Shown in pieces: positions 19,690-50,880 of a stretch of 64,000 nt of DNA. Position 1 is the stretch's first letter. The number at the start of each line of letters is the position of its first letter. Source of the stretch: Tribonema minus (Eukaryota; Sar; Xanthophyceae; Tribonematales; Tribonemataceae); assembly GCA_017506865.1 (NCBI GenBank), contig JAFCMP010000068.1:1240001-1304000 (forward strand). The letters run 5' to 3'. Below the pieces are notes generated by a model, which made no database searches, was not told the DNA's origin, and worked only from the letters and a program-made list of their open reading frames with translations. A program made the position numbers and the translations under genes.

Positions 19690-20508
19690 ATGGGTGGCAC
19701 GACTCTGGAGAGCAGCATCAACAGCGTGGGCACCAGGATCATCGAGTGGGCCACCAATGACCGTAAGGCAGGGCCAACTGCCGACTGGCCAATGGCCGAC
19801 TTCTACTCTGCCGTGATGGTGGTGGCGGCGTACTTGGGGTTCATTTTCGTGGGCAGCTTCGTGATGAAGTTCGTCCAGCCGCTAGATGCCCCGACGTACC
19901 CCTTCCGATTCATCTACAACATCGTCCAGATAATGCTCTGCTCCTACATGTGCCTGGAGGCGGGCATCATCGCGCACCGAAACAACTACGGCATCCTGCC
20001 CTGCGTGCCGTTCAACGTCCAGAACCCCCCTGTTGGTAACGTGCTGTGGCTGTTCTACATCAGCAAGATTCTTGATTTCGCAGACACTGTCTTCATCGTG
20101 CTGCGCAAGAAGTGGAAGCAGCTATCGTTCCTGCACGTGTACCACCACACCACCATCTTCCTCTTCTATTGGCTCAACATCAACGTGGGATACGATGGAG
20201 ATATCTATCTGACCATTGTCCTCAATGGTTTCATCCACACCGTCATGTACACGTACTACTTCGTAAGCATGCACACGGACAAGATATGGTGGAAGAGCAG
20301 CTTGACCGCCATGCAGATGGTGCAGTTTGTCACCATGATTTCGCAGGCCCTTTATCTCCTGACCACGGGGTGCACCACATATCCGCCACGTGTTACACAG
20401 GCATACTGCTTGTACATTTTCTCGTTGCTAATCCTGTTCGGCAATTTCTTCATCAAGAGTTACATGCCCAAACAGGGGGGCAAGAAGCGGGGCAGCAAGA
20501 GCGAGTAG
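19690..20508 (+). CDS. ELO-family long-chain polyunsaturated fatty acid elongase
   Basis: This is the condensing enzyme (3-ketoacyl-CoA synthase) of microsomal fatty acid elongation, an ER multi-pass protein. The gene is intronless, with 272 codons. The start at 19690 is the first ATG, in a strong context (ATCACCATGG); the upstream open frame has no ATG. Motifs: ILDFADTVFIVLRKK (about 127-141), the histidine box HVYHH at 149-153, YWLNINVGYDGDIYLT, and NGFIHTVMYTYYF (about 179-191), followed by IWWKSSLTAMQMVQF. Seven hydrophobic spans are evident. The C terminus ends in a Lys/Arg-rich tail (GGKKRGSKSE), usual for ER retrieval in this family. The wording around the histidine box resembles delta-5/delta-6 PUFA elongases of marine protists. 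Substrate length and desaturation cannot be fixed from sequence. Confidence 0.95.
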   Translation: MGGTTLESSINSVGTRIIEWATNDRKAGPTADWPMADFYSAVMVVAAYLGFIFVGSFVMKFVQPLDAPTYPFRFIYNIVQIMLCSYMCLEAGIIAHRNNYGILPCVPFNVQNPPVGNVLWLFYISKILDFADTVFIVLRKKWKQLSFLHVYHHTTIFLFYWLNINVGYDGDIYLTIVLNGFIHTVMYTYYFVSMHTDKIWWKSSLTAMQMVQFVTMISQALYLLTTGCTTYPPRVTQAYCLYIFSLLILFGNFFIKSYMPKQGGKKRGSKSE

Positions 20509-30130: not shown

Positions 30131-31277
30131 TCGGCCGGCCGCCCCTGCGAGTTGTGTGTGCCGTTGCAGAGCTGTATGAACGAGAGTGTCCTGGGAGTGT
30201 ATCGCAAATTCAAGCGGCAGCGAGAAACGGTGACGATATGCGCAGCTGCATGTGTAGCGCATCGGCACCTGGGTGGTGTTGCAGCTGGTGCTGGCTTTGC
30301 TGACCGTCTGTGAAATCATGTATTCAGTTGAAGACACCACAAACGTTCAGCTTTTCACACACAGAGATTATGACAGGACGTTTGGCTATGATGTGAACAA
30401 ACCACGCATGCATCTTGGTGTTCTGTTCCAGTGTTCTGTGTTTGTCGCATGAAGAGCTGCGTTCTTTGTTTTTCCCTGAGAATTGGGTTGCGACAAGAGG
30501 CACTTCATCATTTGCCGTTGTGTTTAGTTTCGCATGAACACCTGCATTACTCCAACACCTTTGAAGTAGCGTGAGCGCCGAAATCTGGAGGTTTCGTAGT
30601 AAGGTCCCGACCTTTAGGTCTGACAGGTATCCATGCCGAAGGCATCACCACCACCTGCCACCCAGGGTCCAGGGCTAGGGTAGGGGTTGTGGGTGGGTGA
30701 GGGCTTAGGGGGGGGGGTGGATGCGAAATGTGACGCTGAGCAATGATCAGGCTGCCGACATATCAGTTGAAAGTGGTGTGCAAATCCACAATCATGCACA
30801 GCATGGCGTCAAAGCACTAGTGGGAGTCCTCCAACGAGTGTCAACGGTCCAATCTGATGGTGCTAACTCAGACACTGTGTTAGACCCGGTTTTGGGAATG
30901 CCGCATAGGTTTATGCGCGCATCAACTAGCCATTCAACTGCCGTAACTTCAATGGCCCGCATTGCAAAGTGTGGTTTTTTGGCAAGATGTCAGGATGGCA
31001 TACTGTGCTGGTAAACGTCTAACAATCGATACCATACATCGCTATGAAAACTGGAGAAGTGTCAAAAATTGAGTTTTACCACCCAGCTGTGGCAATACTT
31101 TTTTTTATTTTGGCCAAAAGTGATCAATAGAATGCGGCACCAGTGCCTGAAGATGACGGTTGAGTTGAGGTGAAAAAAATGGAAGCAACAGCAATCCTAA
31201 GTAATTATGCTCAAGTAGTATATGCTAAATGAGGCTACTTACCCAAATCCCAAGTATCTAGTCTCCAAGTAGTACAC
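30131..31277. other. Intergenic stretch, no gene seen
   Basis: This is the 3' flank of the acyl-CoA synthetase up to the first retrotransposon fragment. It contains G-rich degenerate repeats at about 30667-30720 (GGGCTAGGGTAGGGG and a run of nine G). No ORF with family resemblance is present. Confidence 0.5.
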
Positions 31278-32240
31278 GCCACTGCAGCAGCAACCACCTA
31301 CGCAGCAGCCGCCGCTGCGGCCGACAGCAGGTGCGCTGTGCCATGTACTCCACAACGGCTTCGTTCGATGGCCTATCCTGGCAGCTGGCCGTCAAACGCG
31401 CCATCGGAGTAGAGGAGCAGACGGCAGGCTGCAAGCTGTGCGGGAAGTCGCCGGGCGGCACCCTGCATGCACGGCTGTGTCAAGCGCCACGCGTCAAGGC
31501 GCACGACACCATTGTCCACAATAGCGTCAAGAGGGCCACGCAGCGCCTCCTGCGGCAATACCTCAAAACGGGACTGGTGGACGAGGACTACACGCCGTTT
31601 CTGGGGTCCGCCGGGCCGCTGGGGAGTATGATGGACATCGTGCTGCCTGCCGACGCCTTCCCGGTGACCGGCTACGACGACCCGACACGCCACCTACCGC
31701 TCATGGTGGACGTTACCTGCTTCGAGGCACAGGTGGCGTCGCGGGCGGCGAAGACTGCAGCAGACCCCGAGCGATGCTGCCGCGACCAAGAGGCCGCCAT
31801 GACTACCCACTATTCTGGTCATTATGATCAGAATTGCTACAAACTTGCCACTTTGGCAATAGGGTTATTTGGCAGCATCGGGGAGCAGGGGCGGAAGCTG
31901 CTGGAGGCTGTGGCGACGGAGTATGCCAGCAGGATGTCAGTGCCCGGAGGAGCGCGCCCTAAAGCTCTCAAGGGCATCGCCCTGGCGCGCTGACGCTCGG
32001 CACTGTCGGCAGCGCTCCACATGGCGTACTCTGGCCGTGTCATGACACACATGGCAGAATCCAGGGGGGGGGGGCACATGGAGGAGGACGTAGGGGAGGA
32101 CCCCGAGATGCGGCGGCGGCGTTTGAGTGGTCGTCGTTGCGACACTTTCAGACTGTCATACGACATGTAGATTCCTTACAGCTAGATGCCAATCATCTGG
32201 GCTTTTTCGCGCCCTGAGCGAGAATTAATAAAAAGTACAC
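31278..32240 (+). mobile_element. Retrotransposon copy 1: 5'-truncated, internally deleted fragment of the RLE-LINE
   Basis: The sequence matches the 3' part of the complete copy at 45355-50880. It starts at the equivalent of 49682, then jumps at 31331 from the equivalent of about 49734 to about 49972 (a loss near 240 bp with a 10-bp filler). It continues through the endonuclease region to the common 3' tail. The endonuclease frame 31331-31993 ends at a TGA (31991-31993) that copy 2 shares but copy 3 lacks. A substitution and short deletion at 31618-31632 replace PPGSRRMD by PLGSMMD. AGTACAC flanks the copy on both sides (31271-31277 and 32234-32240) and may be a target-site duplication. Confidence 0.85.
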
Positions 32241-32732
32241 TGGGCACTATGGGGGGGTGACCTACAGCTTGGCTCAACACATTGTAATGTTGCACTCTCT
32301 ATCACTCCTTATTTACGGCGCAGAAAGCCCAGATGATCCATACCATGCACACGATGAGTACCTTGAAAGCAATTGCACAATGCCAGAGGACGCTGAGAGT
32401 TTGCAGAGCAACTTCAAGGCAGCGACGGCAAACTTCTGCGCTCATGCTTTTATTTATCAGCTCCTGTTACTACTTTGAAGTATGACGACGTGATGTTGTG
32501 TGCCTGCTGCACAGGCGCATTTCACAGTAAGTGAAGTTCATGCCTACAGAGCACAATGTGGTACTTTTCTTGAGTTCTCACTTAAGCCTAGGGTGCGGAA
32601 AATGCCAATTGATTGATGTCAAGCCTGCTACCACAGTCTACATAATGCTTTACGAAAGCGTCTCAAGGCACATTGACGATCACTCTTCAGCGACCAAGCC
32701 AAGTGGCATCTCGCAACCAACTGCATGTACTT
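32241..32732. other. Spacer between retrotransposon copies 1 and 2, with a decayed tail fragment
   Basis: About 490 bp without a gene. At about 32305-32345 a minus-strand fragment resembles the element's 3' tail (GCGCAGAAAGCCCAGATGAT versus GCGCGAAAAAGCCCAGATGAT). This suggests a further old tail-only insertion. The left copy of the CATGTACTT repeat that flanks copy 2 is at 32724-32732. Confidence 0.5.
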
Positions 32733-35700
32733 ATTGTGAATTCTCGCTCAGGGCGCGAAAAAGCCCAGATGATTGATATCAACTGCATGTACTCTTTATT
32801 ATTCTCGCTCAGGGCGCGAAAAAGCCCAGATGATTGGCATCTAGCTGTAAGGAATCTACATGTCGTATGACAGTCTGAAAGTGTCGCAACGACAACCACT
32901 CAAACGCCGCCGCCGCCAAATGGCATCTCGGGGTCCTCCCCTACGTCCTCCTCCATGTGCCCCCCCCCCCTGGATTCTGCCATGTGTGTCATGACACGGC
33001 CAGAGTACGCCATGTGGAGCGCTGCCGACAGTGCCGAGCGTCAGCGCGCCAGGGCGATGCCCTTGAGAGCTTTAGGGCGCGCTCCTCCGGGCACTGACAT
33101 CCTGCTGGCATACTCCGTCGCCACAGCCTCCAGCAGCTTCCGCCCCTGCTCCCCGATGCTGCCAAATGACCCTATTGCCAAAGTGGCAAGTTTGTAGCAA
33201 TTCTGATCATAATGACCAGAATAGTGGGTAGTCTTGGCGGCCTCTTGGTCGCGGCAGCATCGCTCGGGGTCTGCTGCAGTCTTCGCCGCCCGCGACGCCA
33301 CCTGTGCCTCGAAGCAGGTAACGTCCACCATGAGCGGTAGGTGGCGTGTCGGGTCATCGTAGCCGGTCACCGGGAAGGCGTCGGCAGGCAGCACGATGTC
33401 CATCCTGCGACTCCCCGGCGGCCCGGCGGACCCCAGAAACGGCGTGTAGTCCTCGTCCACCAGTCCCGTTTTGAGATATTGCCGCAGGATGTGCTGCGTG
33501 GCCCTCTTGACGCTATTGTGGACGATGGTGTCGTGCGCCTTGACGCGTGGCGCTTGACACAGCCGTGCATGCAGGGTGCCGCCCGGCGACTTCCCGCACA
33601 GCTTGCAGCCTGCCGTCTGCTCCTCTACTCCGATGGCGCGTTTGACGGCCAGCTGCCAGGATAGGCCATCGAACGAAGCCGTTGTGGAGTACATGGGCTC
33701 GTTGAAGAATGCCATGCCGATTGAGTGCATGTGGCGCTGCGACCGGAATTGAGCAAGTGCTTGCGTGCATTGCGTGCCCTGCGGCAGCTGTTCAGGTCCG
33801 CCTCCACCTTATCTGCAAGCTCGGTAGCGACGGCATCTGCAAGCGCACTCTGATTGGGGCGCTTCAGGCTACACTGCAACTGCAGAGCACTGGCGTCAAG
33901 TACGCAAGCAGCATCCGCACCAGTGCCACCACCTGCTGTCGGCCGCAGCGGCGGCTGCTGCGTAGGTGGTTGCTGCTGCAGTGGCGTTAGCGCTGGTGGC
34001 AGTATATGTTCCAGCTTGTCACCTGTTGCTGCACGTAGAGATGTGGCAGCTGTGGCGATCGTCCGCATGAGGGGCAGGCGCGCCACCTCTGCTGCTGCTG
34101 CGCCTTGTAGCATTGCTGGTGTGGAACGCGCAGCGCCTGCATTGACGGCTGCCGCTGCTGCGTGCGCTGGTGCTGCAGCTGCGCCGCCTGCCGTTGCTGC
34201 TGCTGCCAGTGGTGTTGCTGCTGCCGCAGGTGTTGGTGCAGCAGCTGCCGCATTGGCCGCTGCCACCGCCATTGCCGCTGTCGCAGCCGGCACGGTTGCG
34301 GCGCCGCCTGCCGACGCTGCTCCTGTTGCAGGTGCTGCAGCAGCCCTTAGGCTAGTAGGGCCTGTAGCAGCTGTGTTGCCTATGCCCGCAGCCGCTGCTG
34401 TTGATGCTGCAGTTAGTGATGCCGCCGAGGCCACTTGAGGTGCAACATGTGCTGCCGCTGCTGCAGCAGCCTCTGATGCTGGAGCAGCTGCTGCTGCCGC
34501 CGCTGCTGCTGCCGCCGAAGTAGTTGCGCCGTGCGCCGCCGCTGCTGCTGCTGCCGCTGGTGCCGCCTGTGCTGCCGCCGCGGCCCCTGATCCAGCGGCA
34601 GCTGCGTCGTGTGTTGCCGGAATGGCTGCGCCATAAGCGCGGCCAGCCGCTGCTGCAGTTGCCGCTGCCGGAGCTGTCGCGCCTCCACTGGCAACCGCCG
34701 CTGCCGCTGTAACAGTTGCCGCTGCTGATGCTGCTGGTGCTGGTGCTGCTGCCGCTGCTGCCGGTGCCGCTTGTGTTGCCGCATCCTCAGCAGCGTTGTC
34801 TGCAGCCGCTTGAGGAGCCGCCTGCTGCAGCACCCCCGCCCATCCAGAGAGTGCTGGTTGCAGCGCTTGCAACGTGCCCGCCACATACGCAGCGTCAGCG
34901 ATGTCGCAGGCGCTGGTAATGCCAAGGCCGCCATGCCGTGTTGGGAGTCGCGCTTGCTGTAAGGCTGGGCCGTGCGCTGCCAGATGGAAGTGGGCCCCAC
35001 TTTGCTCAAACTGGCGCCAGGTCTGGCCTGGTGGCTGCAGGCCCATTGAGTGCTCAAGCACCCACTGCGTGACCCGATCCCACTCCTTGGCGGCTGGCGC
35101 TGTCTGCGTAGTGGGAATGGTGCGCAGGCAGTACGTCATGCGAGGCACCACGCAGTAGCGCAGTAACCTGAACATAGCCCTCGGAGATGTCAGGCGCGCG
35201 CATCGCTCTGCAAATCGAGCCCCTGCCCCGCCTGCACCCGCTTCCCTGCGCAGCCATGCGTCCACAAAGCTGCTGTGGCCCACCGGCACCCCCAGCAACA
35301 CAGCTCCACGGTTCTGATTTTCATCCGTATCCCCCACTAGCTGAACGCCCAGCTGCTGCAGCAGTTGCCGCTCGTGGTCTGTCACCACATGCCCCCTGCC
35401 AGGCAGCGCGCGTGACTTGGTGAGGTTTAGCTCCAGCCCCACCACCGCAAAGTGTTGTTTGAGCTGCGCCACCGCCTGTATGTCATCCTGAGTCAGCGTG
35501 CAAGCGCCTGTTCGGACGTTGGCATCGTCCATGTAGGCGCCCATCCGCCTCCGCGCGCGCTGCGCGGCCGCCGCCTCATTGAACCGTTTCAAGCACTGAG
35601 CAATGGCGCCGCAGAAGAGCATCGGTGCCGCGGGGTCCCCCTGCTTAAACCCGCGCTGAGACATGATGATGCGCGTGGAGCCGTCGACGTGCTGGAACAG

Positions 35701-37824
35701 CAGGCGTGGCCGAGTGCGAACGTATGTGCCGATGAAGTAGTCGAGGAAGTCCGGCAGCTGTGCTGCTACCCATTCCGCTGCCGCCAGGACGAACACCATG
35801 TTGAAGGCATTCTTGAGGTCCAGCATGAACTGCCAGTGACCGAGCTCATACGCGAGTTTGCCGGCCATGGCCGCTTTCTCCGCTCCTGCTGAGACGGCTA
35901 CCCCATACTGCCCGTCTGGCTCAAGGAGCTCCGCCAGGAAGTCTTTGCGGTCTGCCACGTACACCGAAGTGCATAGTCGCTGCAGCACCTCGCCGCAAAC
36001 GATGGGCCGCTGCTTAGCTGTACCATCTTCCTGTTGTTCTGCAAGTGGCGTCAGGCGCCCCGCGCCATGCAACTGCCAGAAGGCATCCGGCAGCCGCGCA
36101 GCCTCCCGCATAACGGTCTGAAGCCACCGTGTGAGGACAGCAGCAAACTCATGCCGTCCCCAGCTAGTGCGTAGCGCATCCTGCAGGTGGCTGTAGCGCA
36201 GCCCCGATGGGCCTGCTCCACTGTAAGGGCTTGCTCGCTGGATGAGCTTGGCAACCGTCTCTGGCTCAATTCCCTCCCCCTGTAACAGGCTGAGTTCTGC
36301 TGGCATGTCGGCTGCTTTCGCCACAAGCTGATCAACCATGCCGGATAGCTCATGGAGTTGTTCCCCTGGCGCAGCGGGGGGGTGTTTGGACTGCATGGCG
36401 GCAAAGCAGTCATCATCAGGTATCGCCACCGTTTTGGGCTGAAGGAAACGCGCTGCCTGCTGTAGCCCCCCCCGTGTGCCCATGCACTGTAGGACGTAGG
36501 CGTTGATCGCTGCCTCCGTTTGCTGGCGCGCGCGCCAGCGCCGGTGCGCACGCGCGTGTGCGAGGAGCGCTGGCACCAACCGGTCAAGCTCACCGCGTGC
36601 CAACATTCTGATTCTGTCGGAGCGAGTGATGCCAGGTGCGCCATCGGTGGAGGTGATGAGTGATGGCATGCGGTGGTGTAGAATCGTGGATCTTTGCAGT
36701 CGCTGCACCCGCCCTGCGGAATCTGGTTCCCGCGCCGCATTGACGAACATCGTCATTGTGTATGCCAACAGATGTGTTGCTGCGTTCTCCAGTGCAGCTC
36801 CCACATAGCGACGATTGCGTGGTCTAGCAAGGCTTCTAGTTGTCGCGAACTGCAGCTTGCACAGCTCATCGAGGCTGATGCTGTCAAGCACTGCTGCGAC
36901 TGCGGGGGTTGAGATGGTCCACGTGAAAAGCCCACCTGCCCCACCTGCTGCGCCTGCAGGGCCTGGCGCTGCCGCTGCTGTCGCCGCACCTGCCGCTCTG
37001 GGGCCCCCTCCGCCGCCGCCGCGGCCGCCACGACCACAGCCTCGTCCGCCGCTGTCGCTGCTGCGACCGCTGCCACGGCCACCGCGGCCGTTTTGAGTTC
37101 GCGCGCCACTGCCGCTGTTGCTAGCACCGCCGCTGCGGCTGCTGGCATCACTGCTGCGGCCGTTGCCAGCGCCGCTGTCCTTAGTACCGGCTGCACTGCC
37201 GCCGCCGGCACCGCTGCTGCTGCCGCCTCCGGTTCTGCTGCCGCTAGTCGCTCTGCTACTGCTGATGTCTGCATCATTGCTGCCGCTGCGAACGCGTCCT
37301 CCATTGCCACGTCCGCGCCCTCCACTGCGACCCCGACCCCCTCGTGTAGCACTGCTGCCCCCGCGTTCCGGCCTCTTTGAGCTGCCAGAGGAGCTGCTGC
37401 CACCAGCCTGAGCAGCAGGTGCCTGCTGCGCGTGCGCTGGTCCCTTTGCGTAGGGGTTGCCGATGGGTGTGCACGCCGGTTGCTGCTGTGGCAGCGACGT
37501 GGTAGCTGTTGCCGTCGATGCATCAGGTGCTAGCGGTGCTGCTGATGCTGTTGTTGACAATGTTGCCGCCACTGCAGCGGGTGAAGTGATAGGCCTGCAG
37601 TTGCGGCAGTGCTTGCCCGCGCTGGCATCGCTGCTGTCCACTCTGAATGTCTTGTTGGCATGAAACAGGTTTTTGCACAAGGCACACTCGGTGTAGATGG
37701 TTTGCAAGTGCGAGGTGCTGAGGGCGGAGCGCTCCAGGAACGTTGTTGCTGTCCCACTGTGGTGTTTGCGCTGGTGCTTCGCCGCGATGTGGGCGTTTAA
37801 CCTCTGCTGTAACGAGAGCAGCAA
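32733..37824 (-). mobile_element. Retrotransposon copy 2: 5'-truncated, inverted, nearly full RLE-LINE
   Basis: On the minus strand this copy runs from the zinc-finger region to the common 3' tail and is nearly identical to copy 3. It lacks about the first 140 codons: homology starts at the equivalent of 45845. The main ORF (37827-33625) covers the low-complexity N-terminal region, reverse transcriptase and Ala-rich linker. A one-base deletion near 33792 then shifts the frame (GACCTGAACAGC versus GACCTGCAACAGC), and the endonuclease continues in the frame 33730-33041, so the copy is inactive. The 3' tail unit is present twice in tandem (about 32733-32783 and 32795-32840). CATGTACTT flanks the copy at 32724-32732 and 37825-37833. 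Confidence 0.9.
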
Positions 37825-37833
37825 CATGTACTT

Positions 37834-39155
37834 GTTATTAATTCTCGCTCAGGGCGCGAAAAATGTACTAGTGATTCTCGCTTGGAGCACGGAAACCCAG
37901 TGGTTGATGTAAAACTCAAGCTTGAGTTTGCTTCCATGACAAAATGTCTCGATTCACATTGACCATCACTTATGAATGCCATCGCCAAATGGCATTCCCC
38001 CCCCCACTACATCATCGTCCATCTGTCTGCCCCCACTCCGCGATGTGTGTCATGATGCGCAAGGAGTACGCCATATGGAGCTGTCAAGAGAGCGGAGCGT
38101 ATGCCACCAGTGCTATGCGTCTCAAAGCCAGAGGACTGGCTGCTCTGGAACCCGACCTGTGTACTGCTTGCGTATTCGTAGCGACGGCCTCCAGCAGCAA
38201 CTGCAGCAGCTGCAGAGCAATGACATGCTGCAAGTAAACCATGATGCAGCTGTTGTCGGCGGAGCACTGCCACCTGCATAACCGTGGTGCTGCCAGTGCT
38301 GCCACCGCTGAAGTAGCTGTGCCTGCGCCCGTCGCCACTGGTGCAGATGCCGAGGCCATAATGGCTGCGCCACCAATGGCCGAGTAGCGACGCCGACTGG
38401 CCATTGCCGCTGGTCTGTAACTGTTGCCGATACTGGGGCAGCAGCGCCAGGCGGCGGTGCCGCCAACCGCCGACCGCAACTGCCGCTGTCACCGCTGCCA
38501 CCGCTCGAAAAGCTGCGCTGCCTGCAGCGTTGCTCCCGCTGCCGCCGGCGCACTGCCAGCTACGCTGCGTGCGTCCGCTCGAACTGTCAGCCGCGCTGCG
38601 TGCATCCGCTGCTCTCGCCGCCTGTGCTGCTGCAGCCTGAGCACCACTCTCTACGGCTTGAGTCGCCTGCTTCACAAGCTGGCCCACCCAGGAAGTGCTG
38701 ACTACAGCGCTTGCCACGTACGCAGCACCAGATGTGTTGCAGGCGACGGTGATCATAGAATGCTGCCGAGGCCGCCATGACGCGCTGGAAGCCGCGCCTG
38801 TTGAACAGCTGAGCCGTTCGCTGCCAGATGGAAATGGGGACCACATTGCTGAATAATTAGCGCCAGATCTGGACTGGCGGCTGGACCCACTGCTTTGAGT
38901 GTTCACTGCTTGGACTCTTTGGTGGCGGGGCAGGTGCCAAATTGAAATGGTGCGCGTCATGGGTGGCACGCCGTAACACGAACATCGCCATCGGTGATGT
39001 GAGGCGTGCGCAGTGCTCTGCACCTGGAACCCTTACCCCGCGTGCACCGCTTTGCAGCCTCCCACTGCCAGCGCTGGGCACCAAGACAACGCAGCTGCGC
39101 GGTTCTCAGTGGCCCCCCACCAGCTGTACGCGCAGCTGCTGCTTCAGTTGCCCTG
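37834..39155 (-). mobile_element. Older, diverged relative of the RLE-LINE, into whose tail copy 2 inserted
   Basis: Minus-strand reading shows decayed matches to the middle of the element. These include the SVRTY-to-Ala-rich segment: the counterpart of SAGHFHLAAHGP reads as SIWQRTAQLFNRRGFQ in one frame, with Ala-rich runs and frameshifts throughout. Homology spans from about 39155 (equivalent of about 48300 in copy 3) to the 3' tail at about 37835-37900, where two tail-like units with GTAC junctions are seen. No long reading frame survives. The relic's end lies only about 160 bp upstream of the G-alpha start codon. Confidence 0.75.
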
Positions 39156-39315: not shown

Positions 39316-42300
39316 ATGGGGTGCGCGAGCAGCACCGGCGCGGGCGGTGCTGTGGATGGGAATCAGAAGAATGCCGTGGATAAGCTGCTCGAGGCAGAGG
39401 CAGAAAAAGAAAAGTTCATCTACAAGGTGTTGTTGCTTGGAGCAGGCGAGAGCGGCAAAAGCACGTTCAGCAAGCAGCTCAGGCTCATCTACAAACAGGT
39501 GTGCGAATCAGCTGCTTGCTGGATGGTCAGCACCATGCGCACAGAGTTCATTGGTGCTTCGCCGCTTTCAAACTCCGCCAACAGGCAATTAGCGCGCGGG
39601 AGAGAGAGGCGTCTGCTACGGCGCTCCGCTTCAATGTGTTGGAGAGCATGGGCGTGCTCCTGGAGGCGATGCATCAGCAGCTTGAAATACCGCTGGCGGA
39701 CTCTGCCCTGGCGCCTGCTGCTCAACGCGTGCTGATGCAACGAGACGGGTGCCTCACGGTGGAATTGGCCCAGGACGTTCAGGCGCTCTGGCAGGTATTG
39801 TCGCTCGCCGATGATTGCTGTGTCCTTTGCCATTATCTTCTCGCACGTAATTACAGTATGATTTCATCGCTTGCGCCTGCTGGCGTTTGCAGCAACGACC
39901 GCTCACCTTGCGATCTGCCGCCGCATGCACGCAGGACGAGGGCGTTCAAGCGGCGTGGGCACAGCGAGGAAAATTTCACATCCTGGATGCGTCGCCCTTC
40001 TACTTCCGTGAAGCTGTGCGCATTGCTGATCCTGCCTTTGAGATCACCGAGGAGGACCTGATCATGAGGTGATAATTACCTGGTCACACATTGGCTACTT
40101 GACAGTTGTCATTTGTGCATCTTTCTATGTGTGGTCCCCCCATCGCTTTATGTGCACATCCCATATGTGTAAGAACTCATATGATTGCGGCACATTGCTG
40201 CCAGTGTCAATAGTGAATGGCTCACCATGTATATGAAAGTGTAAACGTGTATTCTTGCTCGTACTGCTTGTGTTTAGTGGCCGGCCCGTGAACTCAGATG
40301 ACATTGAACATGGTCCCCAACAGAGTACTCTGACCTGCTTTGGTTTTGCGTTGATGTGTGCTGTTCTGCAGCCGTTCGACCACAACTGGGGTTAAAGTGG
40401 CCACTTTGCCGGAGCCTCCTTTTGAGTTCAGCGTGGTAAGTGGTGGTTGTCCTGCTGGGTGCTGGAGTTGAGCGCTGGTGGTGTGATTGATCATGCCCTG
40501 ATCATTTCTCACCTTGTTCGACACCTGTTGTGTGTCCTTTTTTCTTTTTGCTAGGTCAATCAAGCTTTTCGTACAACTTTTTAGACATGGTCAGCCAGCA
40601 GATGCTGTAGGGTCATAACCTCTTCATCGTGCTTCTTGTTGCTCCTGCTTCATTCGGCCAGGTTGATGTGGGCGGGCAGCGGAATGAGCGGAAAAAGTGG
40701 ATACACATATTCGACGATGTGAAAGCGGTGGTCTTTGTTGTCAGCCTGGTGGGCTACAGCCAGGTCATGTTTGAGGACCCCACCAAGAACAGGATGCACG
40801 AGAGCCTGGAGCTTTTTGAGCAGATTGTGTCCAACCCGCTGTTTGAAGGCGTGCACATCTTTCTGCTGCTCAATAAGAAGGACCTCTTTGAGCAGGCCAT
40901 ACAACATGTCAGCCTCAAGACCTGCTTCCCAGAGGTGAGTGGTCATGATCATGTGTATTCTTTTGTCATGCATGAAACTACTTTTGTCATGCATGAAACT
41001 ACTCATGTCACACATGGCAGCAATAACTCTTCCTATCAACTGATTGGGTCTTCAAGCCTTCTTGCCAGTAGTAATGCCGATGCGCCAGCTATTGGACATC
41101 CGAGGCTAGCCTCTGGGGTCCCCCGGGCTTAGCACGACAGGCTGTAACCTGCTTCTGACCATGTGGTTGGCTGCATACCTTTTACATGACCAGTATGTGT
41201 TTTCTGCGCATGATTGCATTGACAGTATGTGGGGCTAGTTCTAGTCTGTTACAGAGAACACTAAGTCAATGCAGTCATGGTGTCTGTCCTGCACTGGACT
41301 GAAGGGTTACAACTCATGCTCACATATCGTGTGACCAGTGGCAGTGCTTATGTTCAGTGTGGGTGTCGCGGTTAAAGCATATGTTTGTAGAGCACAACAT
41401 CAGCTGCTGAACAGTTGCTGCACTCATCAGCGATTAATGTCTGTGTGTCAGCAGTCGTTGTCTGTGTGTGATAGCAAGTGTGTCGCATCATTCATACGTG
41501 TGCTACGCCTAGACCACTAATAAGGCATAGCAAATCCACTACAAACACTCGCATATCTGCACAAAGCATCGTACATGTATCTATGATTGTAACCGTCCCA
41601 AGCATGCACTCATGATGCCTGATGTCTCCAGGAGTCGCGTACAGTAGAGCTTACATCACTTCGTGTATGCAGAAGTAGTAGCTGAATTGTACACATGCGA
41701 CCATACCATGTTTGTGTCACAAATGGTACTGGTTTGTGTATATGCATAGATGACCTGACTTTCATGTTTATGTCTCTTGTCACATGCTGCAATGGTGATG
41801 CCAGTATGAGGGCGAGGACGGCAATGTGATGGCTGCCATTGAATTTGTGGAGAACAAGTTCAGGGGCGTCATGGCACAGGCTACACCTGGAAAGCCCTTG
41901 ACCACACACTGCATGGCGGCACGGTAAGTCAAGAGATCTAGCACAATGAAGTGTGATGAATACCGAGGAGTGCCATTGGTATATATTTATTTACAGCATT
42001 CATTAGGGTTGGCAAAAACCGTATATTGAGATTTCATATACGGGTAGAAATACATATTGTAGCGTATTTTCCGTATATACGTATATGAAATCCGTATCTG
42101 ACAAACCCAAATCGATGGAACAGGCACTTCCCGACGTAACTTCAAGTTGAAAAAGCAAGTGATTTTGGTGCAATATAAGATGACCACACAGGCAGAAAGA
42201 CATTGACATTATGATGCTGTTGACGTGTTTAACGGGCACATGCCCAATACCCCCGTCCGCCCCCCCCACCTCCCCTTGGAGCCCCCCCCCCCCACGACAT

Positions 42301-43702: not shown

Positions 43703-45354
43703 GGGGGTGCCATAGCATGACTACACCCTGTTGTCATGTTATGCTACCCAGTCTGATGATACACACCTGCTACACATCTGCTGCACATCACTGCACCAGC
43801 AACTCCCAGCTGCGTGTGGTGCGGTGTGATATCAACAACACCAGCACACAAGCGCCCCGCCGTGACGGTATCATGCAGCGTTACTCAGCCTCTGCGCCGT
43901 CAGATTGCAAACATTTGCATCCAGTGCTTGGGACACAGATGCCACACAAGTAGAGTGTGTCACAGCCTGGGGTGGGGGTCTGCATGGCAGCCTATACGTA
44001 CACCACACTCCCGTTGGCCAGACGTTCTACTTGGGTAGCATGGTGCTGTTTTTGTCCTTTACTCTCTCGCGCTTGTGTTGGACAGAGTGTGTGGATACCC
44101 TGTTACAGCTGCTGTCAAACAAAGTACTGCACTTGTCTTGCGATAGGCATGTACCGTGAGCCACTCATTACACATCACGGCTCCAATCATTTTGGCTAGG
44201 AGTTCTTCTTGTACTCTGCTGCTTGCCTCTGTGCTATGGTTATGCTGGCATGAAGGTGCAATGTGATACCGGCTTGAAGGTGCAAAGTGGTACTGCAGCA
44301 TTTACGTTCATGGCTGACAGCAGATTTTGTACCAGTCACGTGTGCTACGCTCTTGAAGTGTATTTGCAATGTGCACCTTCGTGACATGCATTTCGGCGGG
44401 GCCTTCGTGACATGAATGTCGGAGGAACTGGCACAAAATTGTGCATGTCTGTTCCTAACCCTTGCTTGCAATGCATGTCGTCATCTTCTTTTTTGAACTG
44501 TCACAGCGCATGATATGCTGAGTGCAGAGTGCCGCCTCGAAGTACGAGTTCGCCTATGAGCGTCGACACGCAGTTGAACACCAGTACACCTACAGTACAC
44601 CTATGTACCACTGGCCAGCAGTCCATCAGCAAGCATTCATCAAGGAACTCACAACATGCAATGGATGATGAGTGCAGTTGCATACTGTAATGCAGTTTGT
44701 TTTTGTGTGCGGACATCCACAAGCCCCAGTTGATGTGTGCAGCGTATGATGCTGAGACACAACATTTGCTGGACGTGCGCAAAGGGCAAATGGGCAAGGA
44801 GCCGACTGATGGGTATACTTGCAAGGTATGCTGCCAGATCACCATCGCCTAGTAGTGGCAGCATCTCAGGCAAGCTTATGCCAAAGATGCATTGCGGTGC
44901 TTGCATGTGAACTTGTCCAGGTGCAACAAAGCACTTTGTTGACAATGTGGGCCAGTATCAACATGTATATGCTGCCAGTGTCCATACTCTCTCAGATACT
45001 ACTAGTTCCAAGGAACGTGCAGCTGATGCCGAGGCGCCCCCCCCCCCCCACACACACACACTAACCCCGTTCTGGAATCAGAACCAACCCAAAAAGTGTT
45101 CTGTTGGTTCAGTCGCGAGTCAACAGGACGATACTCGCGAGCACCCTAGGCCTTCACAATTCCCTCCTGCATGCAGCTATGCTGGTGCTGCAGCAGATAC
45201 TAAAACACTGATGTTGTCATGATTGCCAGGATGAGTCTTCGTTCCATGAACAAGAACAGTACAACATGTTTGACGCCGCTATGCTTTTCATGTCCACTAT
45301 ACTGTAGATGTCCCGCATGTACAACACAGTAGGTACCGAGTGAGGAAGTACAGG
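43703..45354. other. Region between G-alpha model 1 and the full-length retrotransposon
   Basis: 1.65 kb with no recognised independent gene. It contains the two candidate exons described in the next entry, a (CA)n run at about 45050-45061 next to a C-run, and otherwise short ORFs. An open stretch at about 44528-44668 (SKYEFAYERRHAV) follows an acceptor-like site but lacks a good in-phase donor. Confidence 0.4.
44730..45307 (+). CDS. Two candidate terminal exons, possibly the true 3' end of the G-alpha gene
   Basis: 44730-44825 (32 codons, acceptor GCCCCAG, donor TGCAAG|GTATGC) joins in phase 0 to 45230-45307 (26 codons with stop, acceptor GATTGCCAG). The join reads DGYTCK then DESSFHEQEQ and YNMFDAAMLFMSTIL. 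TC followed by FDAAMLFM resembles the G5-to-alpha-5 arrangement of G-alpha proteins (TCAT...FDAVTDVI). If G-alpha exon 7 ended at 43624 the phases would match, giving about 429 residues with a long insert. Alternatively these exons belong to an unrelated small gene. RNA evidence would settle this. Confidence 0.4.
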
Positions 45355-48300
45355 AATCTAGTAGGCCTCCACGAGATGCGGATAGGTATGTAGCTGTAGC
45401 ATGTAGCACCATGGCGTAGCAGAGATCATGAAAAGAATATCATGGCGGCGGCGGGAGGCCCGTATTGCCAACTCTGAATCAGCGCAGAAATGCAAGGAAT
45501 CCGATCTAGCGTGCGCACAAGCGCAGGATATTAGCACCAGTGCTGCAGATGGCAATGGCGCTTGTCAACAGGACGATGGCACGAGTGGCAGCAGCAGAGC
45601 AACTGGAGACGGACGCGCAGCGCACAAACGCAAGAGGGTACAGAATGACGGTTGGTCAATTTCCGATCAAACAGGCGAAGGGGAGCACACGGGCGGGCAA
45701 AGTGCAGTCAAGCGCTCTAGAACAGGTCATAACAGTCTGGAACAGCAACGTCTGATGCTAGACGACGAAGCTGGAGGTGGAGGCAGTGCGGACCCGGAGT
45801 ACAAGTGCAACTTATGCGACCTCGTGGTGAAGAAGGGCATGTCGCTGCTCTCGTTACAGCAGAGGTTAAACGCCCACATCGCGGCGAAGCACCAGCGCAA
45901 ACACCACAGTGGGACAGCAACAACGTTCATGGAGCGCTCCGACCTCAGCACGTCGCACTTGCAAACCATCTACACCGAGTGTGCCTTGTGCAAAAACCTG
46001 TTTCATGCCAACAAGACATTCAGAGTGGACAGCAGCGATGCCAGCGCGGGCAAGCACTGCCGCAAATGCAGGCCTATCACTTCACCCGCTGCAGTGGCGG
46101 CAACATTGTCAACAACAGCATCAGCAGCACCGCTAGCACCTGATGCATCGACGGCAACAGCTACCACGTCGCTGCCACAGCAGCAACCGGCGTGCACACC
46201 CATCGGCAACCCCTACGCAAAGGGACCAGCGCACGCGCAGCAGGCACCTGCTGCTCAGGCTGGTGGCAGCAGCTCCTCCGGCAGCTCAAAGAGGCCGGAA
46301 CGCGGGGGCAGCAGTGCTACACGAGGGGGTCGGGGTCGCAGTGGAGGGCGCGGACGTGGCAATGGAGGACGCGTTCGCAGCGGCAGCAATGATGCAGACG
46401 TCAGCAGTAGCAGAGCGACTAGCGGCAGCAGAACCGGAGGCGGCAGCAGCAGCGGTGCCGGCGGCGGCAGTGCAGCCGGTACTAAGGACAGCGGCGCTGG
46501 CAACGGCCGCAGCAGTGATGCCAGCAGCCGCAGCGGCGGTGCTAGCAACAGCGGCAGTGGCGCGCGAACTCAAAACGGCCGCGGTGGCCGTGGCAGCGGT
46601 CGCAGCAGCGACAGCGGCGGACGAGGCTGTGGTCGTGGCGGCCGCGGCGGCGGCGGAGGGGGCCCCAGAGCGGCAGGTGCGGCGACAGCAGCGGCAGCGC
46701 CAGGCCCTGCAGGCGCAGCAGGTGGGGCAGGTGGGCTTTTCACGTGGACCATCTCAACCCCCGCAGTCGCAGCAGTGCTTGACAGCATCAGCCTCGATGA
46801 GCTGTGCAAGCTGCAGTTCGCGACAACTAGAAGCCTTGCTAGACCACGCAATCGTCGCTATGTGGGAGCTGCACTGGAGAACGCAGCAACACATCTGTTG
46901 GCACACACAATGACGATGTTCGTCAATGCGGCGCGGGAGCCAGATTCCGCAGGGCGCGTGCAGCGACTGCAAAGATCCACGATTCTACACCACCTCATGC
47001 CATCACTCATCACCTCCACCGATGGCGCACCTGGCATCACTCGCTCCGACAGAATCAGAATGTTGGCACGCGGTGAGCTTGACCGGTTGGTGCCAGCGCT
47101 CCTCGCACACGCGCGTGCGCACCGGCGCTGGCGCGCGCGCCAGCAAACGGAGGCAGCGATCAACGCCTACGTCCTACAGTGCATGGGCACACGGGGGGGG
47201 CTACAGCAGGCAGCGCGTTTCCTTCAGCCCAAAACGGTGGCGATACCTGATGATGACTGCTTTGCCGCCATGCAGTCCAAACACCCCCCCGCTGCGCCAG
47301 GGGAACAACTCCATGAGCTATCCGGCATGGTTGATCAGCTTGTGGCGAAAGCAGCCGACATGCCAGCAGAACTCAGCCTGTTACAGGGGGAGGGAATTGA
47401 GCCAGAGACGGTTGCCAAGCTCATCCAGCGAGCAAGCCCTTACAGTGGAGCAGGCCCATCGGGGCTGCGCTACAGCCACCTGCAGGATGCGCTACGCACA
47501 AGCTGGGGACGGCATGAGTTTGCTGCTGTCCTCACACGGTGGCTTCAGACCGTTATGCGGGAGGCTGCGCGGCTGCCGGATGCCTTCTGGCAGTTGCATG
47601 GCGCGGGGCGCCTGACGCCACTTGCAGAACAACAGGAAGATGGTACAGCTAAGCAGCGGCCCATCGTTTGCGGCGAGGTGCTGCAGCGACTATGCACTTC
47701 GGTGTACGTGGCAGACCGCAAAGACTTCCTGGCGGAGCTCCTTGAGCCAGACGGGCAGTATGGGGTAGCCGTCTCAGCAGGAGCGGAGAAAGCGGCCATG
47801 GCCGGCAAACTCGCGTATGAGCTCGGTCACTGGCAGTTCATGCTGGACCTCAAGAATGCCTTCAACATGGTGTTCGTCCTGGCGGCAGCGGAATGGGTAG
47901 CAGCACAGCTGCCGGACTTCCTCGACTACTTCATCGGCACATACGTTCGCACTCGGCCACGCCTGCTGTTCCAGCACGTTGACGGCTCCACGCGCATCAT
48001 CATGTCTCAGCGCGGGTTTAAGCAGGGGGACCCCGCGGCACCGATGCTCTTCTGCGGCGCCATTGCTCAGTGCTTGAAACGGTTCAATGAGGCGGCGGCT
48101 GCGCAGCGCGCGCGGAGGCGGATGGGCGCCTACATGGACGATGCCAACGTCCGAACAGGCGCTTGCACGCTGACTCAGGATGACATACAGGCGGTGGCGC
48201 AGCTCAAACAACACTTTGCGGAGGTGGGGCTGGAGCTAAACCTCACCAAGTCACGCGCGCTGCCTGGCAGGGGGCATGTGGTGACAGACCACGAGCGGCA

Positions 48301-50880
48301 ACTGCTGCAGCAGCTGGGCGTTCAGCTAGTGGGGGATACGGATGAAAATCAGAACCGTGGAGCTGTGTTGCTGGGGGTGCCGGTGGGCCACAGCAGCTTT
48401 GTGGACGCATGGCTGCGCAGGGAAGCGGGTGCAGGCGGGGCAGGGGCTCGATTTGCAGAGCGATGCGCGCGCCTGACATCTCCGAGGGCTATGTTCAGGT
48501 TACTGCGCTACTGCGTGGTGCCTCGCATGACGTACTGCCTGCGCACCATTCCCACTACGCAGACAGCGCCAGCCGCCAAGGAGTGGGATCGGGTCACGCA
48601 GTGGGTGCTTGAGCACTCAATGGGCCTGCAGCCACCAGGCCAGACCTGGCGCCAGTTTGAGCAAAGTGGGGCCCACTTCCATCTGGCAGCGCACGGCCCA
48701 GCCTTACAGCAAGCGCGACTCCCAACACGGCATGGCGGCCTTGGCATTACCAGCGCCTGCGACATCGCTGATGCTGCGTATGTGGCGGGCACGTTGCAAG
48801 CGCTGCAACCAGCACTCTCTGGATGGGCGGGGGTGCTGCAGCAGGCGGCTCCTCAAGCGGCTGCAGACAACGCTGCTGAGGATGCGGCAACACAAGCGAC
48901 ACCGGCAGCAGCGGCAGCAGCACCAGCACCAGCAGCATCAGCAGCGGCAACTGTTACAGCGGCAGCGGCGGTTGCCAGTGGAGGCGCGACCGCTCCGGCA
49001 GCGGCAACTGCATCAGCGGCTGGCCGCGCTTATGGCGCAGCCATTCCGGCAACACACGACGCAGCTACCGCTGGATCAGGGGCCGCGGCGGCAGCACAGG
49101 CGGCACCAGCGGCAGCAGCAGCAGCGGCGGCGCACGGCGCAACTACTCCGGCGGCAGCAGCAGCGGCGGCAGCAGCAGCTGCTCCAGCATCAGAGGCTGC
49201 TGCAGCAGCGGCAGCACATGTTGCACCTCAAGTGGCCTCGGCGGCATCACTAACTGCAGCATCAACAGCAGCGGCTGCGGGCATAGGCAATACAGCTGCT
49301 ACAGGCCCTACTAGCCTAAGGGCTGCTGCAGCACCTGCAACAGGAGCAGCGTCGGCAGGCGGCGCCGCAACCGTGCCGGCTGCGACAGCGGCAATGGCGG
49401 TGGCAGCGGCCAATGCGGCAGGTGCTGCACCAACACCTGCGGCAGCAGCAACACCACTGGCAGCAGCAGCAACGGCAGGCGGCACAGCTGCAGCACCAGC
49501 GCACGCAGCAGCGGCAGCCGTCAATGCAGGCGCTGCGCGTTCCACACCAGCAATGCTACAAGGCGCAGCAGCAGCAGAGGTGGCGCGCCTGCCCCTCATG
49601 CGGACGATCGCCACAGCTGCCACATCTCTACGTGCAGCAACAGGTGACAAGCTGGAACATTTACTGCCACCAGCGCTAACGCCACTGCAGCAGCAACCAC
49701 CTACGCAGCAGCCGCCGCTGCGGCCGACAGCAGGTGGTGGCACTGGTGCGGATGCTGCTTGCGTACTTGACGCCAGTGCTCTGCAGTTGCAGTGTAGCCT
49801 GAAGCGCCCCAATCAGAGTGCGCTTGCAGATGCCGTCGCTACCGAGCTTGCAGATAAGGTGGAGGCGGACCTGCAACAGCTGCCGCAGGGCACGCAACGC
49901 ACGCAAGCACTTGCTCGATTCCGGTCGCAGCGCCACATGCACTCGATCGGCATGGCATTCCTCAACGAGCCCATGTACTCCACAACGGCTTCGTTCGATG
50001 GCCTATCCTGGCAGCTGGCCGTCAAACGCGCCATCGGAGTAGAGGAGCAGACGGCAGGCTGCAAGCTGTGCGGGAAGTCGCCGGGCGGCACCCTGCATGC
50101 ACGGCTGTGTCAAGCGCCACGCGTCAAGGCGCACGACACCATTGTCCACAATAGCGTCAAGAGGGCCACGCAGCGCCTCCTGCGGCAATACCTCAAAACG
50201 GGACTGGTGGACGAGGACTACACGCCGTTTCTGGGGTCCGCCGGGCCGCCGGGGAGTCGCAGGATGGACATCGTGCTGCCTGCCGACGCCTTCCCGGTGA
50301 CCGGCTACGACGACCCGACACGCCACCTACCGCTCATGGTGGACGTTACCTGCTTCGAGGCACAGGTGGCGTCGCGGGCGGCGAAGACTGCAGCAGACCC
50401 CGAGCGATGCTGCCGCGACCAAGAGGCCGCCAAGACTACCCACTATTCTGGTCATTATGATCAGAATTGCTACAAACTTGCCACATTGGCAATAGGGTCA
50501 TTTGGCAGCATCGGGGAGCAGGGGCGGAAGCTGCTGGAGGCTGTGGCGACGGAGTATGCCAGCAGGATGTCAGTGCCCGGAGGAGCGCGCCCTAAAGCTC
50601 TCAAGGGCATCGCCCTGGCGCGCTTACGCTCGGCACTGTCGGCAGCGCTCCACATGGCGTACTCTGGCCGTGTCATGACACACATGGCAGAATCCAGGGG
50701 GGGGGGGCACATGGAGGAGGACGTAGGGGAGGACCCCGAGATGCCATTTGGCGGCGGCGGCGTTTGAGTGGTTGTCGTTGCGACACTTCCAGACTGTCAT
50801 ACGACATGTAGATTCCTTACAGCTAGATGCCAATCATCTGGGCTTTTTCGCGCCCTGAGCGAGAATTAATAAAAAGTACA
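45355..50880 (+). mobile_element. Retrotransposon copy 3: full-length RLE-class non-LTR retrotransposon
   Basis: This is the most complete member of the family. It carries one unbroken ORF (45428-50767) and a 3' tail from about 50768 to 50880 ending AATTAATAAAAAGTACA. There are no long terminal repeats. The 5' end is not fixed. AAGTACA occurs at 45348-45354 and again at the 3' end, so the element may begin just after it, leaving a short 5' UTR of about 70 bp. The tail and coding regions match copies 1 and 2 almost base for base, pointing to recent activity. It is oriented opposite to copy 2, with the G-alpha gene between them. Confidence 0.9.
45428..50767 (+). CDS. Retrotransposon polyprotein: zinc fingers, reverse transcriptase, Ala-rich linker, restriction-like endonuclease
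   Basis: 1,779 residues, uninterrupted. Order: basic N terminus; C2H2 finger YKCNLCD...NAHIAAKH (about 124-153); a second Cys cluster ECALCKNLF...KHCRKC (about 183-215); Ser/Gly/Arg-rich region (about 238-437); and SGAGPSGLRYSHLQ. The reverse transcriptase spans about 650-950, with palm motifs MLDLKNAFN (Asp), RGFKQGDPAAPMLF, YMDD at about 901 and GLELNLTKS. An extreme Ala-rich linker follows (about 1134-1381). At the C terminus is CKLCGKSPGGTLHARLC, a CX2CX8HX3C finger (about 1544), then RRMDIVLP and LMVDVTC, which fit the PD-(D/E)XK restriction-like endonuclease of R2/NeSL/CRE-type LINEs. It would bind and nick target DNA and prime reverse transcription there. No apurinic-type endonuclease or RNase H is seen. 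The C terminus is 47 codons longer than in copies 1 and 2, which have TGA where this copy has TTA (50624-50626). Confidence 0.92.
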   Translation: MKRISWRRREARIANSESAQKCKESDLACAQAQDISTSAADGNGACQQDDGTSGSSRATGDGRAAHKRKRVQNDGWSISDQTGEGEHTGGQSAVKRSRTGHNSLEQQRLMLDDEAGGGGSADPEYKCNLCDLVVKKGMSLLSLQQRLNAHIAAKHQRKHHSGTATTFMERSDLSTSHLQTIYTECALCKNLFHANKTFRVDSSDASAGKHCRKCRPITSPAAVAATLSTTASAAPLAPDASTATATTSLPQQQPACTPIGNPYAKGPAHAQQAPAAQAGGSSSSGSSKRPERGGSSATRGGRGRSGGRGRGNGGRVRSGSNDADVSSSRATSGSRTGGGSSSGAGGGSAAGTKDSGAGNGRSSDASSRSGGASNSGSGARTQNGRGGRGSGRSSDSGGRGCGRGGRGGGGGGPRAAGAATAAAAPGPAGAAGGAGGLFTWTISTPAVAAVLDSISLDELCKLQFATTRSLARPRNRRYVGAALENAATHLLAHTMTMFVNAAREPDSAGRVQRLQRSTILHHLMPSLITSTDGAPGITRSDRIRMLARGELDRLVPALLAHARAHRRWRARQQTEAAINAYVLQCMGTRGGLQQAARFLQPKTVAIPDDDCFAAMQSKHPPAAPGEQLHELSGMVDQLVAKAADMPAELSLLQGEGIEPETVAKLIQRASPYSGAGPSGLRYSHLQDALRTSWGRHEFAAVLTRWLQTVMREAARLPDAFWQLHGAGRLTPLAEQQEDGTAKQRPIVCGEVLQRLCTSVYVADRKDFLAELLEPDGQYGVAVSAGAEKAAMAGKLAYELGHWQFMLDLKNAFNMVFVLAAAEWVAAQLPDFLDYFIGTYVRTRPRLLFQHVDGSTRIIMSQRGFKQGDPAAPMLFCGAIAQCLKRFNEAAAAQRARRRMGAYMDDANVRTGACTLTQDDIQAVAQLKQHFAEVGLELNLTKSRALPGRGHVVTDHERQLLQQLGVQLVGDTDENQNRGAVLLGVPVGHSSFVDAWLRREAGAGGAGARFAERCARLTSPRAMFRLLRYCVVPRMTYCLRTIPTTQTAPAAKEWDRVTQWVLEHSMGLQPPGQTWRQFEQSGAHFHLAAHGPALQQARLPTRHGGLGITSACDIADAAYVAGTLQALQPALSGWAGVLQQAAPQAAADNAAEDAATQATPAAAAAAPAPAASAAATVTAAAAVASGGATAPAAATASAAGRAYGAAIPATHDAATAGSGAAAAAQAAPAAAAAAAAHGATTPAAAAAAAAAAAPASEAAAAAAAHVAPQVASAASLTAASTAAAAGIGNTAATGPTSLRAAAAPATGAASAGGAATVPAATAAMAVAAANAAGAAPTPAAAATPLAAAATAGGTAAAPAHAAAAAVNAGAARSTPAMLQGAAAAEVARLPLMRTIATAATSLRAATGDKLEHLLPPALTPLQQQPPTQQPPLRPTAGGGTGADAACVLDASALQLQCSLKRPNQSALADAVATELADKVEADLQQLPQGTQRTQALARFRSQRHMHSIGMAFLNEPMYSTTASFDGLSWQLAVKRAIGVEEQTAGCKLCGKSPGGTLHARLCQAPRVKAHDTIVHNSVKRATQRLLRQYLKTGLVDEDYTPFLGSAGPPGSRRMDIVLPADAFPVTGYDDPTRHLPLMVDVTCFEAQVASRAAKTAADPERCCRDQEAAKTTHYSGHYDQNCYKLATLAIGSFGSIGEQGRKLLEAVATEYASRMSVPGGARPKALKGIALARLRSALSAALHMAYSGRVMTHMAESRGGGHMEEDVGEDPEMPFGGGGV

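What the first reader, a model, noticed from the sequence alone, without database searches (positions are those of the whole stretch)
45355..50880. Intact RLE-class retrotransposon with an unusual architecture
The 1,779-residue ORF joins N-terminal zinc fingers, a Ser/Gly/Arg-rich domain, a reverse transcriptase, a roughly 250-residue almost pure alanine linker and a CCHC plus PD-(D/E)XK endonuclease. The RLE domain places it with R2/NeSL/CRE-type LINEs, usually site-specific. The Ala-rich linker between RT and endonuclease and the RRMD in place of the usual K/R-PD core are not features I know from described clades. The frame is unbroken, so it may be active.
Basis: partly seen in the sequence, partly recalled or inferred. 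Interest (0 to 1): 0.75.

Follow-up and report, generated by a model that had tools for sequence, protein, structure and literature searches.

The report
Retrotransposon family inserting at AGTACA sites
This is an uninterrupted copy of a self-copying mobile element (a LINE that seems to carry a restriction-enzyme-like cutter) in a eukaryotic genome, and its copies in this stretch sit at the short DNA word AGTACA, three of them stacked head to tail behind an older relative.

Summary
The 1,779-residue frame at 45428-50767 is real: two N-terminal zinc-finger-like clusters, a Gly/Ser/Arg-rich stretch, a reverse transcriptase (Pfam RVT_1, E 2e-10), a 260-residue stretch that is 53% alanine (not "almost pure"), a CCHC knuckle and, in order, the motifs of a LINE restriction-like endonuclease (RLE). 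RMD instead of R/KPD is not strange: MoTeR1 and FoTeR are published with RAD. The endonuclease fold was not confirmed (single-sequence AlphaFold2, pLDDT 38).

New here: the window holds more copies. B (99.1% identical, 5'-truncated, frameshifted) and C (97.9%, 5'-truncated, internally deleted) share a stop codon that A lacks; there are also two 3'-end stubs (~30 and ~45 bases) and a decayed relative, D. All six 3' ends run into AGTACA; B, C and both stubs also start at AGTACA. B and both stubs stand in one direction directly behind D. I read this as target-primed reverse transcription at AGTACA, each insertion restoring the site. A and C are not stacked. Duplication lengths beyond the hexamer are mostly at chance level.

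Genome-wide counts and clade could not be tested: 36 calls to the genome server did not complete.

The parts
45347..45352 (+). AGTACA upstream of copy A; candidate 5' target repeat
   Evidence: shares AGTACA plus one preceding A with the 3' site; weak by itself, because the 5' end of A is not fixed by a second full-length copy
45353..45427 (+). putative 75-base 5' leader of copy A
   Evidence: inference from the AGTACA at 45347 and the ATG at 45428
45428..50767 (+). copy A, single 1,779-aa open reading frame
45806..45892 (+). N-terminal CxxC...HxxxxH cluster (residues 127-155), C2H2-like by eye
   Evidence: read from the sequence; no Pfam zinc-finger match
45980..46069 (+). CxxC...CxxC cluster (residues 185-214)
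   Evidence: read from the sequence
46253..46762 (+). Gly/Ser/Arg-rich stretch (residues 276-445)
   Evidence: 55 G, 34 S, 24 A, 21 R of 170
47648..48262 (+). reverse transcriptase core (residues 741-945), YMDD at 902-905
   Evidence: Pfam RVT_1, E 2.1e-10; motif positions
48833..49612 (+). Ala-rich linker (residues 1136-1395), 139 of 260 Ala, mostly GCA/GCG codons
   Evidence: no length change in copy B
50060..50110 (+). CCHC knuckle CX2CX8HX3C (residues 1545-1561)
   Evidence: compare CX2-3CX7-8HX4C and C[X1-3]C[X7-8]H[X3-4]C
50144..50506 (+). restriction-like endonuclease motifs VHN, E1596, R1612-M-D1614, D1639, K1669-TTH-Y1673 (about residues 1573-1693)
   Evidence: assigned by eye; fold not confirmed
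50768..50874 (+). 3' untranslated tail ending GCGAGAAT + TAATAAAA
   Evidence: five matches to the 113-base tail in the window (A itself included), all ending in AGTACA
50875..50880 (+). AGTACA at the 3' junction of copy A
31271..32239 (+). copy C: AGTACAC, 5'-truncated and internally deleted element, AGTACAC; stop at residue 1733, R1612 and K1669 replaced by M
32788..37832 (-). copy B: AGTACATG, 5'-truncated element (from about residue 136), AGTACATG; frameshift near residue 1482 and stop at 1733
37827..37869 (-). short 3'-end stub (about 30 bases) between two AGTACAT
32726..32793 (-). second 3'-end stub (about 45 bases) between two AGTACATGCAGTTG (14 shared bases)
37870..39152 (-). D: decayed relative (65% DNA identity to A over 620 aligned columns; RHGGLG-like and C-terminal pieces recognisable), tail GCGAGAATCACT before AGTACAT; its 5' end was not determined

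Best explanation
Copy A is an uninterrupted member of a family of RLE-encoding LINEs. Its protein probably binds the element RNA and DNA through its zinc-finger and Gly/Ser/Arg-rich parts, nicks the bottom strand next to AGTACA with the C-terminal restriction-like endonuclease, and primes reverse transcription from the nick (TPRT). The cDNA is often incomplete, giving 5'-truncated copies and stubs. The second cut lies some bases further on, so AGTACA is kept on both sides of the insert. Because an insert ends next to an AGTACA, a further copy can go in at the same place, giving a same-direction stack. Shown: the frame, the RT match, the motif order, the copies, the truncations, the AGTACA junctions. 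Inferred: the nuclease fold and activity, TPRT, the order of cuts, the serial stacking. The Ala-rich linker is most likely a flexible, expanded spacer between the RT/thumb part and the knuckle/endonuclease part, with no sequence-specific job (inference).
For: Frame and RT. Motif order against the published REL consensus; K-x2-x-Y against the KX2KY of PMC5678591 (passages). Copies B, C, two stubs and D. Six of six GCGAGAAT tails in the window run into AGTACA after 4-8 bases; the other six of the 12 GCGAGAA hits have no AGTACA within 25 bases. Same-strand order D, stub, B, stub with AGTACA at every joint. B against A: 15 silent of 39 changes, 26% expected without selection.
Against: Beyond the hexamer, the five pairs (A, C, B, short stub, long stub) share 0, 1, 2, 1 and 8 bases; unrelated AGTACA pairs in the window (1,176 pairs of 49 sites) share 6 bases in all in 883, 7 in 214, 8 in 51. 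So only the 14-base pair stands out, and duplication lengths are not proven. The 14-base pair could instead be a tandem duplication (one search lists a 61-base period, 1.9 copies, 91% match). The stack is one locus, and neighbouring insertions share junction sites, so the events are not independent. The 5' ends of A and D are not fixed. The endonuclease fold was not obtained. In my reading the R of RH(D/N) is V, the spacer before it is 11 instead of 9-10, and the spacer R-x-D to D/E is 24 instead of 12-14.
Confidence: 0.7

Rival explanations
1. AGTACA is the last hexamer of the element itself, not target DNA; the element inserts without sequence preference, and the 5' AGTACA sites are chance or a by-product of recombination between tails.
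For: All six 3' ends carry AGTACA, as an element end would; beyond the hexamer the matches are mostly at chance level.
Against: Four copies or stubs truncated at different element positions all begin at AGTACA, which occurs about once per 2,250 bases per strand here (57 sites on both strands).
Confidence: 0.12
2. The stacked cluster arose by tandem duplication or unequal recombination of an old insertion, not by repeated insertion at one site.
For: The 61-base period at 32718-32836; the 14 shared bases around the second stub.
Against: The stub tails differ from B's in the bases between GCGAGAAT and AGTACA while the rest is nearly identical; B is 99% like A but D only about 65%, so D and B did not arise by one recent duplication; C and A lie apart, on the other strand, with AGTACA at their ends too.
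Confidence: 0.2
3. The element belongs squarely to a described RLE clade (for example CRE with Cnl1, MoTeR and FoTeR) and differs only in a low-complexity spacer, so nothing here is new beyond a further member. This does not exclude the insertion mechanism above.
For: A like domain order; RAD in MoTeR1/FoTeR is close to RMD, and HX3C in their knuckle as here; Cnl1 is said to prefer inserting into copies of itself, with 0-13-base duplications (passages); Utopia has a linker insertion (passages).
Against: None that tests it: no reference sequences could be fetched, and the RT gives no PDB RT by phmmer. The junction word AGTACA is not a telomere repeat of the kinds named in the papers read.
Confidence: 0.45
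4. The C-terminus is not a working endonuclease and the family moves with help from another element.
For: Poor single-sequence model; no family match; B and C share a stop at residue 1733 yet were copied.
Against: R-x-D, D and K-x2-x-Y are present in A and in B; the shared stop lies after these motifs; in decayed copy C the R and the K are lost.
Confidence: 0.12

Closest known systems
MoTeR1 (Magnaporthe) and FoTeR (Fusarium) telomeric RLE LINEs, related to CRE
   Same: RT followed by a CX2CX6HX3C knuckle and an R-A-D core; C2H2 fingers near the N-terminus in several FoTeR proteins. MoTeR copies stand head to tail with target sequence between them (passages)
   Different: Their target is the telomere repeat; an Ala-rich linker is not mentioned in the parts read; here the junction word is AGTACA, the knuckle has X8 instead of X6, and the R-x-D to D/E spacer is 24 instead of 12
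Cnl1 of Cryptococcus neoformans
   Same: Reported to insert preferentially into copies of itself; 5'-truncated insertions; 0-13-base duplications (passages)
   Different: Subtelomeric arrays; duplications contain CACCCCT; a frame of about 2.5 kb against 5.3 kb here
R2, R4, NeSL, HERO clades and the Utopia lineage
   Same: Zinc fingers, RT, knuckle and RLE in this order
   Different: Clade could not be tested; the targets named are rRNA, snRNA and spliced-leader genes and microsatellites
Dualen/RandI (green algae by recall)
   Same: An RLE in the element
   Different: Dualen also encodes an APE; no APE match here

Membership tests
RLE-class LINE (group) | Non-LTR reverse transcriptase | tested here: met
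   RVT_1 E 2.1e-10; LINE type rather than another RT type is inferred from domain order and 5' truncation, not from phylogeny
RLE-class LINE (group) | CCHC knuckle upstream of the endonuclease | tested here: met
   CX2CX8HX3C at 1545-1561 against C[X1-3]C[X7-8]H[X3-4]C
RLE-class LINE (group) | RH(D/N)...E...R/KPD...D/E...KX2KY order and spacing | tested here: inconclusive
   VHN (X11 after the knuckle; published X9-10), X20 E, X15 RMD, X24 D, then K1669-X2-H-Y; V for R, M for P (A in MoTeR1) and a longer spacer
RLE-class LINE (group) | PD-(D/E)XK fold | tested here: inconclusive
   AlphaFold2 on a single sequence, mean pLDDT 37.8; second job not accepted
RLE-class LINE (group) | TPRT marks: 5' truncation with a constant 3' end | tested here: met
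   for the copies in this window only
RLE-class LINE (group) | Target-site duplications (where the clade makes them) | tested here: inconclusive
   AGTACA on both sides of five insertions, but further shared bases exceed chance in one pair only
CRE clade | RT phylogeny | not testable with these tools
   no reference RT sequences could be fetched; genome server unanswered in 36 tries
CRE clade | Insertion into telomere repeats or spliced-leader exons | tested here: inconclusive
   junctions read AGTACA in a gene-bearing region; the rest of the genome and the contig's length were not seen
Dualen | APE plus RLE in one element | tested here: not met
   no APE family match in the 1,779 aa (E up to 1)
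Utopia (oomycete members) | RNase H upstream of the RT | tested here: not met
   no RNase H match; other Utopia members lack it too, so this excludes only that branch
R2 / R4 / NeSL / HERO | RT phylogeny | not testable with these tools
   as for CRE

The most novel reading that the evidence does not exclude
The family prefers its own 3' ends as target: the endonuclease favours AGTACA when it follows an element tail (GCGAGAAT + 4-8 bases), so each insertion builds a preferred target for the next and the family grows as same-direction stacks inside gene-bearing DNA. In the one stack seen, three younger insertions (B and two stubs) went in directly behind the tail of the old relative D. Against it: A and C, two of the five insertions, stand at AGTACA sites with no tail before them.
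Probability: 0.2. Interest if true: 0.6.

Novelty: new member of a known kind. Interest (0 to 1): 0.4.

Why it matters
RLE LINEs branch early among LINEs (PMC4640811), and how their target choice arises is an open question; some are being developed as tools for targeted gene insertion (recalled). A family that cuts at a short word and restores it with every insertion would be a simple intermediate between scattered and strictly site-specific insertion, and the constant 3' tail next to the word makes the idea directly testable.

Tried and rejected
Family and structure searches: Pfam and NCBIfam beyond the RT gave nothing useful; PDB phmmer with the whole protein, the RT part and the C-terminal part gave weak, unrelated hits or none. 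Relatives were sought with two scans of viral contigs, one of genome contigs and one tblastn of plasmids: none found; the scans use six short peptides each, so distant relatives would be missed. Rfam (gathering threshold) and tRNA scans of the window: none. The 3' tail does not fold better than shuffles (z -0.89), so no structured 3' end is claimed. AlphaFold2 on residues 1470-1779 was useless, and I drew nothing from it. The ten paper searches were made; others returned no paper. The claim that RMD is unprecedented was dropped. The idea that duplication lengths are proven was dropped after the control.

The organism was not identified. From recall of elongase sequences I thought of an alga or other protist, because of the fatty-acid elongase at 19.6 kb, and from recall of RT motifs of algal and cnidarian elements I thought the RT not unfamiliar; no call tests either, and no conclusion rests on them.

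Full report
WHAT IS THERE. The frame at 45428-50767 is open for 1,779 residues. Pfam finds one family in it, RVT_1 at 741-945, E 2.1e-10. CxxC lies at 127, 185, 211 and 1545. Residues 276-445 are rich in Gly, Ser and Arg (55, 34 and 21 of 170). Residues 1136-1395 hold 139 Ala in 260 (53%), 220 of 260 being A, T, P, G, S or V, and the longest Ala run is 11. The codons are mainly GCA and GCG.

THE ENDONUCLEASE. PMC12857005 (section 16 read; other passages) gives the published order C[X1-3]C[X7-8]H[X3-4]C[X9-10]RHD/N.X19-33.E.X9-21.R/KPD.X12-14.D/E, and RAD in place of R/KPD in MoTeR1 and FoTeR. PMC5678591 (passages) puts the catalytic lysine of LINE endonucleases in a KX2KY motif further on. Copy A reads C1545-X2-C1548-X8-H1557-X3-C1561-X11-V1573-H-N1575-X20-E1596-X15-R1612-M-D1614-X24-D1639, then K1669-T-T-H-Y1673 (positions and the sequence; my assignment by eye; AHD at 1568-1570 is another candidate for the RHD/N place). 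This fits apart from V for R, one extra residue before it and the longer spacer before D1639. No family or PDB sequence matched this part, and AlphaFold2 without relatives gave pLDDT 37.8. The fold is therefore inferred.

MORE COPIES. Within the window, blastn finds copy B on the minus strand (37836-32782, 99.1% over 5,057 bases), copy C (31341-32239, 97.9%, with a further 58-base piece at 31276-31333) and a decayed relative D (65% to A over 620 columns, and a second piece of 228 columns). Against A, B has 39 coding changes, 15 of them silent (38%; 26% expected at random); four of the others lie at the 5' joint. B has a frameshift near residue 1482 and a stop at 1733; C has the same stop (read). 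A shared stop suggests that B and C come from one source that is not A. The linker shows no length change between A and B, so it is not expanding quickly. D keeps RHGGLG-like and C-terminal pieces with Ala-type coding between them, but lacks most of the length between them; it suggests, weakly, that the Ala-rich stretch is old in this family.

THE ENDS. The 113-base tail has five matches in the window, all ending in AGTACA: A, B, C and two stubs. With D there are six tails; all six GCGAGAAT run into AGTACA after 4-8 bases, and of the 12 GCGAGAA in the window the six others have no AGTACA within 25 bases. At the 5' side, B, C and both stubs begin at AGTACA: C at AGTACAC, B at AGTACATG, the short stub at AGTACAT, the long one at AGTACATGCAGTTG followed by four unmatched bases. 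For A, AGTACA lies 75 bases before the ATG; this fits but is not proven. The 5' end of D was not determined. Control against my reading: outside the hexamer, four of five pairs match no further than unrelated AGTACA pairs do. So the hexamer is supported, the duplication lengths are not.

THE STACK. Read in the direction of the elements, minus strand: D tail, AGTACAT, stub, AGTACATG, copy B, AGTACATGCAGTTG, stub, AGTACATGCAGTTGG. The simplest order is D first, then the long stub, then B, then the short stub, each into the AGTACA directly behind D. This order is inferred. Tandem duplication could explain the long stub, but hardly D and B. A and C are not part of a stack: the AGTACA at their 5' side has no tail before it.

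HOW IT LIKELY WORKS. Bottom-strand nick at the 5' edge of AGTACA, priming by ...TGTACT-3'OH, reverse transcription from the tail, early stops giving truncated copies, top-strand cut some bases on. The last bases before AGTACA contain AATAAA in A, B and C, so transcripts may run into AGTACA and pair with the primer; this is speculation. The mechanism is TPRT by analogy with R2-group elements and MoTeR (PMC3636483 and PMC7367193, passages).

COMPARISON. RLE LINEs are divided into CRE, R2, R4, NeSL and HERO, besides Dualen (PMC4640811, sections 3 and 9 and passages). MoTeR forms head-to-tail arrays at telomeres, and Cnl1 is said to prefer copies of itself (PMC12810828, passages). So stacking has a precedent. 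What differs here is the word AGTACA, in a stretch that also holds a fatty-acid elongase, a methyltransferase and a TRIP13 N-terminal domain, and the 260-residue Ala-rich linker. The stack lies at least 24 kb from either end of the window; the contig's length and the distance to a telomere are not known. I found no paper naming such a linker, but only one search looked for it, and the library lacks most subscription journals. Clade membership is untested.

VERDICT.

Noticed in passing
window 19579-20505 (+): Single open frame for a fatty-acid elongase (Pfam ELO, E 8.7e-56, profile positions 1-240 of 242), so no intron in this stretch.
   Followed up: no
window 10742-11449 (+) and 13459-14151 (+): Lysine methyltransferase family (PF10294, E 2.2e-26) and a TRIP13 N-terminal domain (PF23563, E 5.1e-10); 3 of the 10 neighbouring frames tried had a Pfam match at E 0.01 or better.
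   Followed up: no
L001, L003 (own genome, C59 and C7): Two of the top-scoring RT loci of the genome have long open frames of LTR type (Ty3-like by eye); many rows have identical scores, which suggests recent copies.
   Followed up: no
window 31276-31345: Copy C lacks 234 bases of the element just inside its 5' end, with a few unrelated bases at the joint, a rearrangement close to the truncation point.
   Followed up: no
window 40960-41010 and 58929-58979: Short tandem arrays (21- and 18-base units), outside the element copies.
   Followed up: no
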